Notes under the pieces: generated by a model
The model's database searches: none
What the model saw: the letters and a program-made list of their open reading frames with translations, nothing else
Told to the model about the DNA's origin: nothing
In this document: positions 44,284-50,633 of the stretch, one piece after another
How the letters are laid out: the number at the start of each line of letters is the position of its first letter
How positions within the stretch are numbered: the stretch's first letter is position 1
Program-made: the position numbers and the translations under genes
Assembly (NCBI GenBank): GCA_030141605.1
Contig: JAQGDQ010000038.1
Span: 372,001 to 436,000, forward strand
Direction of reading: 5' to 3'
Length of the DNA stretch: 64,000 nucleotides
From: Tubiluchus corallicola
Lineage: Eukaryota > Priapulida > Priapulimorpha > Priapulimorphida > Tubiluchidae

Positions 44284-47200
44284 CTATGTTTTGCAATTGT
44301 GGCAATACTTGAAGTCCGGCCACTTGATGGCGCTCCTCTTTCTACGTAAAACAGGCGGCAACGGTGGTGGCAAATAGTCTGTTTTGGCCACTCGCGCATT
44401 TACACCCCGAGTAACCGGCCGAGCAACACAGCTAAACAAAACAAGCAATATTTAAATAAAATAAATGTGTAATGTTGAAGATATATTGACATTTTACAAA
44501 CATTCTGGGTTTTCCCTAATAATAAAGATAGTTCTGAACACACATGTGCTTAAGCACTGCATCAGAGTGATATAAATAATTATATTGCAAGGCTCAAATG
44601 AACGTGAACACCAACCTTAATCCTATAAACTCGTACGAATATGAATGCAGCTTTAAAGCTTAGAATTAAGGCATTCATGCTGGTATAAAAGTAGTTTCAA
44701 ATTTACTGCTTAAACGTAATGAGTAATATGATTCTAGCTTTAAAGCCACGGGTTCAGATAAATGTGAAAACTGTTTTATAAACGTAAATGGATTTTTAAA
44801 GCGTGTGACGTGCAGGCAACAGAAATGAATTCATTGTCAAACTTGCTCTACGGCATTTTAAACTGTACCAAAGCACCATGCACACATGCAGTGCAGGTTG
44901 AGCACGCACAAAAAGAAAGTCGAAGTCGTAAAATGTACTAAAAACTCTATATTAACGTTCGAATACCATTATTTGTTTGGATAGCACAATAGTAGTATTA
45001 ATTGTTGTTATCCTTAGTGTAGCAATACAATGTAATTTCATTTTGTAAACTTGCTGACGCTCTGCAACTATAGCCGTCGCACACGAGCCAAAATCTGTGT
45101 GCAGCAATCTGTGTGCTGCTGACTCACCAGACTAAGCGCTGATTTATCAATTTTGCGCACGCTTATACACTTTTTGCAAAGCCAGTAGAAAGCTACTGGC
45201 AGTTCCAACTTCCAATAAGACAAAGTTACTATGTAAGTTCTAAATTAAAATCTTGTAAATCTAAAAATAGAAGTTTTAACCCCCTTCCTACCAAAAGAGA
45301 ATAGAATCATGCAGATGCTGCCATTCTTGGCGCTGAAAGCAGAAAAAATCACACGGCAAAAATGTGATAAACGTGTAAAAACAAGTTAAACAACTACAAT
45401 CAAAATAATAAATTAGTTTCTGGTGTTAGATTATAGAATCAAGTAAATATTTAACCAGGCTGTAACAAATAGTGCATTATTCTCGAAATTGTCACTCCAC
45501 CGTAGCAGATGTGACAAATCGCTGCCATTAGAATGCATGTGGTGACTGCCAATAGTAAGTAATTAATGCTCACAGTCAGCACATTCGACAGCACATTCGA
45601 AATTCACAAGATCAACTTTTATATGAAGATGGGTAATTAGTACTAATTACTCGGATGCTAATGCAACGAACAGCGTACATGTACTACGTGCAATAACAGA
45701 GAGACACATGCAGCTGATATTCGAAATAACTATCTAGTCATACAATGCACAAAAGTTTAGTAATTTAGACTTGCCAAAGAGAGAGAAAGAGAGAGAGAGA
45801 GAGAGAGAGAGAGAGAGAGAGAGAGAGAGAGAGAGAGAGAGAGAGAGAGAGAGAGAGAGAGAGAGAGAGAGAGAGAGAGAGAGAGAGAGAGAGAGAGAAG
45901 AGAGACAGAGAATTAAAAGTTTGCCTGCAATGTACGAAGTTTTGACAAGAAGGTTACTTTAACTTTCCTGTGGTCAGTTTAAACTTACATTATTACTGTA
46001 ACCTGTTCTTACTTACCTGCAAGCTGATTTACTGTAATATTGACCAGTGGGACATATTTCTTCAAATGGGCATTTACATTTACAGTGAGTTGGGTCCCAT
46101 CTTTGCCTTTCTGTACAGTAGTTTGCATCTTCAATGTTGGGACAGATGCACTGACAGTCTTTGTAGATCTGAAACACATTAAAAAAAGTTGAAGTTTTAG
46201 GCATTATGTTAATCACGTTTACTCGGTTATTTTACTGAAACTTTTATTTTAGACAGTTTTTGCAAGAGTTCAGTATTTACTGACTCGCACATTGTAAACT
46301 TGAGTGGCTGCTCTTAGTCAATGTGTTGCTCTTTTCCTGCTTTACCAATTTTAGTCAGAAATATTCCGGAAAAATTGCAATTTCTACAATTTAGTTTTAC
46401 AAACTTTCCTTGAATTCTTTTTTATAATTGCATGAAAAATAAAGCTCTTGCAACCCATTTATTGTGAAGTCCATAACAGTCATCGCGCGACATAGACATT
46501 GCAATTAAAATCATATAGATTTGTATATTAAGTTGCAGAAAGTATAGATGCACAAGAACAGAGAGCGATCCACTAGGAGCCTAGACAAGTTACAGTTTCC
46601 AAAGAGTCAATGACATAGGCGAAGGTTGCAAAATAATAACCTGATACGATGTACAGTCTTCTGGACTCTTCCTGCAAAGGCAGTCACATCGAGTATGGTT
46701 TTGCAATGTCAAAACTTCTAAACCTTCTGGGATAAAATAGGAAGCACCGTATGTTGGATATCTCACTTTATACACCTATATGAAACACAAAATATTTAAT
46801 TAGAATGACAGTGCCGGGAATAATAGTCTAGTAGCTAACGTTAACGAATTTTCGTGGTCCATATGAATGATGACGAGAGCGGTGATGAAGCACAAAACAA
46901 TGCTGAATGCTCTACAAATGTTCGTTGTTAGTACGTTATATAAAGCATCTTGCAAAAAAACAGTTTATTAGTTATGACTAAATTAAATGACGTGTCTCTT
47001 TAAATTTGAAAGAAATGTCAAATTTGCCCCAGTCATTGAATTAAAATTTGTCTTAGTCCTATTACTCCTACGTGACTCTAATTCCTTATTAACTTGTGAC
47101 ACTTTGATACATGCATGTCATATACATAGCCATTATTATGCATACATAATTACATGACTTAATAGTCAAACAACCACCACAACACACACACAACCACACC

Positions 47201-50200: not shown

Positions 50201-50633
50201 ATATATATATATATATTAATGTATAACGAGTTAATGTAGTAAATACTTAATTGAGCCAGTTGTAAAAATTGATCAAACTAAATATGTACGAAATTTGATA
50301 GCAAAATTCTTACAAACGCGGAACCACTCATTGTACACGTACCTTACGTGGAGGCGGCATTGGTTCGTAACTGTGCGCTTGTATTTGTCCAAATGCTGCC
50401 GAAGACATGTCATTCTGGTCTGTTGTTGACTTCCAAGGGTTAGCGGTCTTGATGAATGACTGGTGGATCTCTTGGTCGATAAATTCAGGCTCCGTCCCAT
50501 ACACATTTACCTCATCATTGTTGGTGTTAACTCTAATGGAACTTGTGTCAACTCTAGACGAAACTCTGCAGACGACAGTGTTGAAAGTTAACAAGCTGCA
50601 CACTACTATATATAATAAAAACTGAGCAGCCAT
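44284..50633 (-). CDS. secreted PDGF/VEGF-family growth factor with a chitin-binding type-2 (CBM14) domain
   Basis: Eight coding exons: 50633-50343, 49961-49850, 48775-48572, 48076-47945, 47490-47294, 46775-46641, 46168-46017, 44431-44284. Junction phases are 0,1,1,1,0,0,2, all consistent; 456 residues. Order: signal peptide (1-22, MAAQFLLYIVVCSLLTF core); acidic linker; IPASLMVALKDVKNADDFF (98-116), like the PDGF propeptide helix; six-cysteine CBM14 domain (Cys149,162,168,178,191,199); Tyr/acid linker; PDGF/VEGF knot with all eight cysteines (257,280,286,289,290,301,342,344; WPPCTELHQCGGCC) and the glycosylation site NHT338-340. A VEGF-C-like cysteine-rich tail with WDPTHCKCKCP follows, then basic RRKR (437-440), a furin-type site. 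Predicted role: dimeric ligand for PDGFR/VEGFR-type kinases. The exon start at 50670 looks like an acceptor, so a leader exon is expected. The last exon (44284-44431) is joined by phase and fit only. Confidence 0.85.
45779..45908. repeat. (GA)n microsatellite
   Basis: About 60 GA units, nearly uninterrupted, in the last intron of the PDGF/VEGF-type gene. Confidence 0.97.
47167..47236. repeat. CA/CCA-rich simple sequence
   Basis: A strand-asymmetric run made almost only of A and C (ACAACACACACACAACCACA and variants) in the intron just downstream of the first PDGF/VEGF knot exon. Confidence 0.9.
49253..49459. mobile_element. 195-bp MITE-like element in the PDGF/VEGF gene intron
   Basis: Left end ACGTTTACGTAGCATGCGGA and right end (inverted) GCGTTTACGTAGTTTGCGGA form imperfect terminal inverted repeats of about 25 bases. 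The hexamer ACTTTT flanks both sides (49253-49258, 49454-49459). The interior repeats TGCGGAA several times. No coding capacity. It lies between the propeptide exon and the chitin-binding exon. Confidence 0.6.

What the first reader, a model, noticed from the sequence alone, without database searches (positions are those of the whole stretch)
44284..50633. PDGF/VEGF-family growth factor carrying a chitin-binding (CBM14) domain
Seen: on one strand, eight exons with mutually compatible phases encode signal peptide, PDGF-propeptide-like helix, a six-cysteine domain spaced C-x12-C-x5-C-x9-C-x12-C-x7-C, then the complete eight-cysteine PDGF/VEGF knot and a VEGF-C-like cysteine-rich tail. Known: that spacing, with the NGYFPDPNDCAAFYQC text, fits the peritrophin-A/CBM14 fold, usually found in peritrophic-matrix, cuticle and chitinase proteins. 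PDGF/VEGF ligands are usually retained in matrix by heparin- or neuropilin-binding tails. Inference: the ligand may be stored on chitin or a similar glycan and released by proteolysis. I know of no described member with this architecture.
Basis: partly seen in the sequence, partly recalled or inferred. Interest (0 to 1): 0.88.

Follow-up and report, generated by a model that had tools for sequence, protein, structure and literature searches.

The report
Growth factor carrying chitin-binding domain
An unidentified animal whose genome holds chitin-making genes has a VEGF-like growth factor gene with an exon for a chitin-binding type of domain between the pro-region and the growth-factor domain; it could tether the signal to chitin, but neither the spliced transcript nor chitin binding has been shown.

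Summary
Eight minus-strand exons (50633 to 44284), with GT/AG introns and matching phases, encode a 456-aa protein: hydrophobic leader, pro-region, CBM14 domain (Pfam E 1.6e-12), PDGF/VEGF domain (E 3.9e-11) and three VEGF-C-like BR3P-type stretches. The CBM14 exon is a symmetric phase 1-1 exon. With a phase 1-1 linker exon it interrupts an intron position that a CBM14-less paralogue shares in phase. Three other copies of the locus carry remnants of the CBM14 exon with one shared insertion and no usable splice sites. So the fusion is not a contig chimera and predates those duplications, but the domain is dispensable. The genome has chitin synthase genes and other CBM14 domains. My limited searches found no second animal with the fusion; an animal-wide VEGF survey does not mention chitin or CBM in its main text. 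'Released by proteolysis' lacks support: no dibasic site lies between CBM14 and the growth-factor domain. Most likely it is a VEGF-C-type ligand with a chitin anchor kept on the mature form, perhaps switched by exon skipping. Transcript and binding are unproven.

The parts
50343..50633 (-). exon 1: hydrophobic leader and N-terminal pro-region (residues 1-97)
   Evidence: ATG, GT donor, ends in phase 0; signal peptide judged by eye, no predictor run
49850..49961 (-). exon 2: pro-region helix text (phase 0 in, 1 out)
   Evidence: same text in spider P0001 and in paralogue B with the same phases
48572..48775 (-). exon 3: CBM14 (peritrophin-A) domain, symmetric phase 1-1 exon
   Evidence: Pfam CBM_14 E 1.6e-12; six cysteines 12-5-9-12-7; solved CBM14 relatives
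47945..48076 (-). exon 4: linker without cysteine, phase 1-1
   Evidence: no dibasic site in residues 200-256
47294..47490 (-). exon 5: first part of PDGF/VEGF domain (phase 1 in, 0 out)
   Evidence: exon hit of PF00341 in the genome search; same phases in paralogue B
46641..46775 (-). exon 6: second part of PDGF/VEGF domain and start of the tail
46017..46168 (-). exon 7: BR3P-like (silk-homology) cysteine-rich tail
   Evidence: motif as defined in PMC10328876
44284..44431 (-). exon 8: end of the last BR3P-like stretch, RRKR site (residues 437-440), C-terminus and stop
43307..54288 (.). span of about 11 kb of which parts recur on contig C1916 and twice on C1863, each time with a disabled CBM14 exon

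Best explanation
This is a PDGF/VEGF-family ligand of the VEGF-C-like type (pro-region, cystine-knot domain, BR3P-type tail) that has gained a CBM14 module as a phase 1-1 exon in the intron between pro-region and growth-factor domain. Shown: the gene model, both domains, the phase symmetry, no CBM14 found around two other PDGF/VEGF loci of this genome, relics in three copies, chitin synthase genes in the genome. Inferred: the exon was gained and not lost elsewhere; the dimeric ligand carries two CBM14 domains and is held on chitin or another GlcNAc-containing matrix near the secreting cells. Because no dibasic site separates CBM14 from the growth-factor domain, I think the anchor stays on the mature ligand, and that a soluble form, if any, comes from skipping exon 3 or from the CBM14-less copy.
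For: Model and domains. Same intron position and phases in a CBM14-less paralogue: (it matches PDGF only; no CBM14 in six frames of the 10 kb around it). CBM14 relics in the C1916 and C1863 copies. Chitin synthase: 13 exon matches on four contigs, QRRRW in the 2 loci read (that this motif marks chitin synthase is recalled). Eight other CBM14 places in the genome, 33-45% identical. No dibasic site in residues 200-256, RR at 134-135. Solved relatives include chitinase CBM14 domains.
Against: No transcript. No second species with the fusion: 2 and 4 proteins at E <= 1e-3, none with CBM14. All three copies lost the CBM14 exon while C1916 and C1863a keep the rest open, so the domain is dispensable for an open ligand gene. 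Position 193 is His where the chitotriosidase domain has Trp, although one other CBM14 of this genome also has His there. dN/dS of the window gene (without exon 3) against the copies is 0.73, 1.00 and 0.95, no sign of purifying selection from this comparison. The chitin synthase family also matched 4 of 14 control bacterial genomes, so the family match alone is not specific. No structure could be predicted (service busy).
Confidence: 0.5

Rival explanations
1. The CBM14 fold is kept but does not bind chitin: it is a spacer or a module for protein or other glycan binding (other GlcNAc polymers, mucins, the receptor complex).
For: His193 stands where the chitotriosidase domain has Trp. A mite allergen has a related domain (4zce) whose chitin binding I recall as doubtful (recall, not checked).
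Against: Full-length profile match well over the cut-off; the GYFPDP-DC-FYQC core is present; a genome with chitin synthases and other CBM14 domains; another CBM14 of this genome has the same CNHAS text.
Confidence: 0.28
2. Exon 3 is a cassette or fossil exon that is rarely or never included; the working ligand is the 388-aa form without CBM14, as in the copies.
For: Exon 3 is phase 1-1 and leaving it out keeps the frame; C1916 and C1863a are open without it; all three copies lack its AG acceptor and GT donor.
Against: In the window copy acceptor, pyrimidine-rich tract, donor, reading frame and all six cysteines are intact, which would be unexpected for an unused exon.
Confidence: 0.18
3. The CBM14 exon belongs to another gene, or the join is an assembly error.
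For: No transcript is available.
Against: The same order (CBM14 relic upstream of the PDGF exon) is assembled at two other places (C1916, C1863b), with a partial relic at a third (C1863a); a CBM14 profile (built partly from this exon) found no other CBM14 in the window or 60 kb of its flanks; phases match on both sides.
Confidence: 0.03

Closest known systems
VEGF-C/VEGF-D type ligands (P0002-P0004)
   Same: N-terminal pro-region, eight-cysteine PDGF/VEGF domain, CXCXC (BR3P-type) tail
   Different: CBM14 exon and linker between pro-region and knot domain; shorter tail; Pfam CXCXC does not score in the window protein
Invertebrate PVFs (spider P0001, Uloborus diversus; paralogue B of this genome)
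   Same: matching pro-region text, PDGF domain, same type of tail; in paralogue B the same intron phases
   Different: neither has a CBM14 match
CBM14/peritrophin-A proteins (chitinases, peritrophins, cuticle proteins)
   Same: complete six-cysteine CBM14 domain
   Different: here attached to a growth-factor ligand and not to an enzyme or structural protein
Heparin-binding, alternatively spliced VEGF-A isoforms (partly recalled; matrix binding of the tail read in passages of PMC10328876)
   Same: works like: an accessory part that holds the ligand in matrix and can be spliced out
   Different: unrelated domain, on the N-terminal side, and a different presumed polymer

Membership tests
PDGF/VEGF family | PDGF/VEGF domain above the Pfam cut-off | tested here: met
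   PF00341 43.5 bits, cut-off 27, positions 2-82 of 82
PDGF/VEGF family | eight knot cysteines with CGGCC core | tested here: met
   residues 257, 280, 286, 289, 290, 301, 342, 344; assignment from recall of VEGF
PDGF/VEGF family | secreted dimer that activates a VEGFR/PDGFR-type receptor | not testable with these tools
   needs expression; hydrophobic leader seen by eye only
VEGF-C-like subgroup | BR3P (CX10CXCXC) repeats after the knot domain | tested here: met
   three BR3P-like stretches, one perfect; Pfam CXCXC itself did not score at E <= 1
CBM14 | complete domain above the Pfam cut-off with six cysteines | tested here: met
   47.8 bits, cut-off 22.1, 1-53 of 53; spacing 12-5-9-12-7
CBM14 | Trp at the position of the chitotriosidase domain (importance for binding recalled; not required by the Pfam family) | tested here: not met
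   His193 aligned with Trp of 6so0; the other CBM14 domains read in this genome have W, H, Y, F or Q there
CBM14 | binds chitin | not testable with these tools
   none
Single fused gene | both domains in one transcript | not testable with these tools
   no transcripts held; compatible phases and relics in copies are indirect support

The most novel reading that the evidence does not exclude
A chitin-anchored VEGF-like morphogen: a ligand whose range is set by binding to the animal's own chitin (cuticle, gut lining, shell or tube) through a permanently attached CBM14, with a soluble form made by skipping that exon or by duplicated CBM14-less genes. It would be a chitin counterpart of heparin-retained VEGF isoforms.
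Probability: 0.3. Interest if true: 0.8.

Novelty: new variant of a known kind. Interest (0 to 1): 0.6.

Why it matters
Vertebrate VEGFs are patterned in part by how tightly accessory domains hold them in the matrix. A ligand of the same family with a chitin-binding module would show that matrix retention was solved again with a different polymer, and would link growth-factor signalling to chitin structures that the animal builds, sheds or repairs. The locus also gives a natural comparison: one copy with the anchor exon intact, and copies in which that exon was disabled once and then duplicated.

Tried and rejected
Second species with the fusion: full protein, 2 hits; alignment A1, 4 hits, two of them new; none has CBM14. 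Those searches need shared five-residue words, so a diverged fused relative could be missed and absence is weak evidence.

Organism: the last protein search went to enolase. Of 7002 hits 120 were listed, none above 79% identical. A quick tree of 71 of those 120 plus the window put the window enolase beside a group that holds the named nematodes, within a group that also holds the arthropods (SH-aLRT 86 and 90). The listing showed no named mollusc, annelid or priapulid and most rows have no name, so the phylum stays open. COX1 was not found in the assembly.

Separate gene and misassembly were rejected for the relics in copies. The alternative upstream acceptor at 48854 gives a frameshift and stop. 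Selection on the CBM14 exon itself could not be measured: no orthologue, and the copies' exons are dead. My first dN/dS and codon counts for C1863b were read out of frame; one search repeats them in frame (0.95 in place of 1.4), which changes no conclusion or odds.

Of 34 genome-search searches were answered (16, 22, 31, 84). The arthropod cuticle family PF00379, a CBM14 family count (PF01607) and the 18S family were wanted and never answered. Structure prediction of the CBM14 exon was never accepted (9 of 9 calls busy), so no fold comparison was done.

Full report
What is there. I rebuilt the gene from the minus strand. Eight exons, 50633-50343, 49961-49850, 48775-48572, 48076-47945, 47490-47294, 46775-46641, 46168-46017 and 44431-44284, join at seven GT...AG introns with consistent phases into 456 codons and a stop. 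Pfam recognises two domains, both over their curated cut-offs: CBM_14 at residues 149-199 (E 1.6e-12, whole profile) and PDGF at 258-344 (E 3.9e-11). Among solved structures 47 distinct sequences match at E up to 1; the best are a chitinase with a CBM14 domain (6g9c) and VEGFs. After the knot domain come three BR3P-like cysteine stretches, one a perfect CX10CXCXC. PMC10328876, of which I saw the passages returned (12 of 31 places), describes such repeats in VEGF-C/D, in cnidarian VEGFs and in the inferred ancestral protein.

How the CBM14 exon sits in the gene. Exon 3 begins and ends in phase 1, so it can be added or skipped without disturbing the frame; the frame is open without it (388 aa). 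The linker exon 4 is also phase 1-1. A second PDGF/VEGF gene of the same genome (paralogue B, contig C1834) has a matching pro-region exon (phase 0 in, 1 out) followed directly by the knot-domain exon (phase 1 in, 0 out). It matches only the PDGF family. A CBM14 profile found nothing in six frames of the 10 kb around it or around the third type of gene on C1907. A spider PDGF/VEGF-like protein (P0001) shares the pro-region text and has no CBM14 match. The simplest history is insertion of one or two symmetric exons into an existing PVF intron; this is inference, since loss in the other genes is not excluded.

Other copies. The genome search with the PDGF family listed five places, a lower bound; a DNA comparison added one more on C1863. 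Parts of an 11-kb span of the window (43307-54288) recur on C1916 and twice on C1863, in blocks 86 to 98% identical. In C1916 and C1863b the CBM14 exon is still recognisable but disabled: the acceptor AG reads AA, about 200 bases stand where the window has about 20, and the donor GT is gone; C1863b also lacks 8 bases. C1863a keeps the end of the same insertion and lacks the first part of the exon. One inactivation followed by duplication explains all three. C1916 keeps the other seven exons with their splice sites and reads open; it lacks 60 bases of exon 1 in frame and two bases at the stop codon, which lengthens its end. C1863a is like it but has lost knot cysteine 280. C1863b lacks exons 1, 2 and 4 and part of exon 7. 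Read in frame, dN/dS of window against copies is 0.73, 1.00 and 0.95 (367, 367 and 200 codons). So the copies look relaxed, and the comparison gives no evidence of purifying selection on the window gene either. Two conclusions: the CBM14-PDGF order is not a contig chimera, and the CBM14 exon can be lost without closing the rest of the gene.

Does the animal have chitin to bind? By gene content, yes: 13 exon matches to the chitin synthase family on four contigs (C1030, C530, C2082, C1806), all at or over the cut-off. That family also matched 4 of 14 bacterial control genomes, so I read the two loci returned; both have the QRRRW motif that I recall as typical of chitin synthase. The CBM14 search found eight places besides the window and two copies (11 in all). 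The window domain is nearest to two domains on C2061 (45 and 41%); one on C1911 shares the text CNHAS. At the position that is Trp in the chitotriosidase domain the window has His193; that this Trp matters for binding is from recall. So the domain family is sure and chitin as its ligand is probable, not shown.

Mechanism. Matrix retention of VEGFs by accessory parts, and release by proteolysis or splicing, is established knowledge. Here no dibasic or furin-type site lies in residues 200-256 between CBM14 and the knot domain. There is a dibasic pair at 134-135, just before CBM14 and created by the exon 2-3 join, and RRKR at 437-440 near the C-terminus. I therefore think the mature dimer keeps its CBM14 domains, and that a free form would come from exon skipping or from the CBM14-less copy.

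The organism is unknown. The genome has 343.5 Mb in 2344 contigs and no relatives held. Of 7002 enolase hits the 120 listed do not exceed 79% identity. A quick tree puts it beside a group holding the named nematodes, next to arthropods, with moderate support, but the sample had no named member of many phyla.

Novelty. Eight full-text searches bore on the fusion (two searches were on other points). They listed 0 to 15 papers each, 15 of 39 were listed. No listed title or abstract start describes a PDGF/VEGF ligand with a chitin-binding domain. I read none of those papers. The animal-wide VEGF survey PMC10328876 (found) has zero occurrences of 'chitin' and 'cbm' in its main text; its supplements were not seen. 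Both domains are familiar, so I class this as a new variant of a known kind. My sense that the fusion is undescribed rests on these searches and on recall.

Noticed in passing
window 43307-54288; C1916:2597-12292; C1863:11990-22408 and 32501-37383: The growth-factor locus has three further copies that share one insertion in the CBM14 exon; C1916 is otherwise open.
   Followed up: yes
C1834:592000-601999 (L009) and C1907:182000-191999 (L010): Two further, diverged PDGF/VEGF loci without CBM14, so the animal has at least three types.
   Followed up: partly
window about 26349-33641 (+): Multi-exon enolase gene (exon joins by eye).
   Followed up: partly
window 8032-8769 (+): Single-ORF protein with two RRM domains; it looks like U1A/SNF (recall).
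   Followed up: no
window 21069-22397 (+): Long F-box protein ORF.
   Followed up: no
window 43087-43431 (+): Ninjurin-like ORF just past the 3' end of the growth-factor gene, on the other strand.
   Followed up: no
window 55423-55671 and 58487-59734 (+): ORFs matching the PAXIP1-associated protein family (first over the cut-off, second below it); the second carries many SPRQ-type repeats.
   Followed up: no
window 10089-10162 (-): tRNA, the only Rfam match at gathering score in the window.
   Followed up: no
C1030:204949-252359; also C530, C2082, C1806: Several chitin synthase-like genes, apparently in a row on C1030.
   Followed up: partly
window 62733-63107 (+): ORF that looks like the end of a retrotransposon reverse transcriptase (impression from recall; no Pfam match).
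   Followed up: no
C1916 and C1863, exon 8: The RRKR site of the window protein reads RRKK in C1916 and HRKK in C1863b; C1863a keeps RRKR.
   Followed up: no
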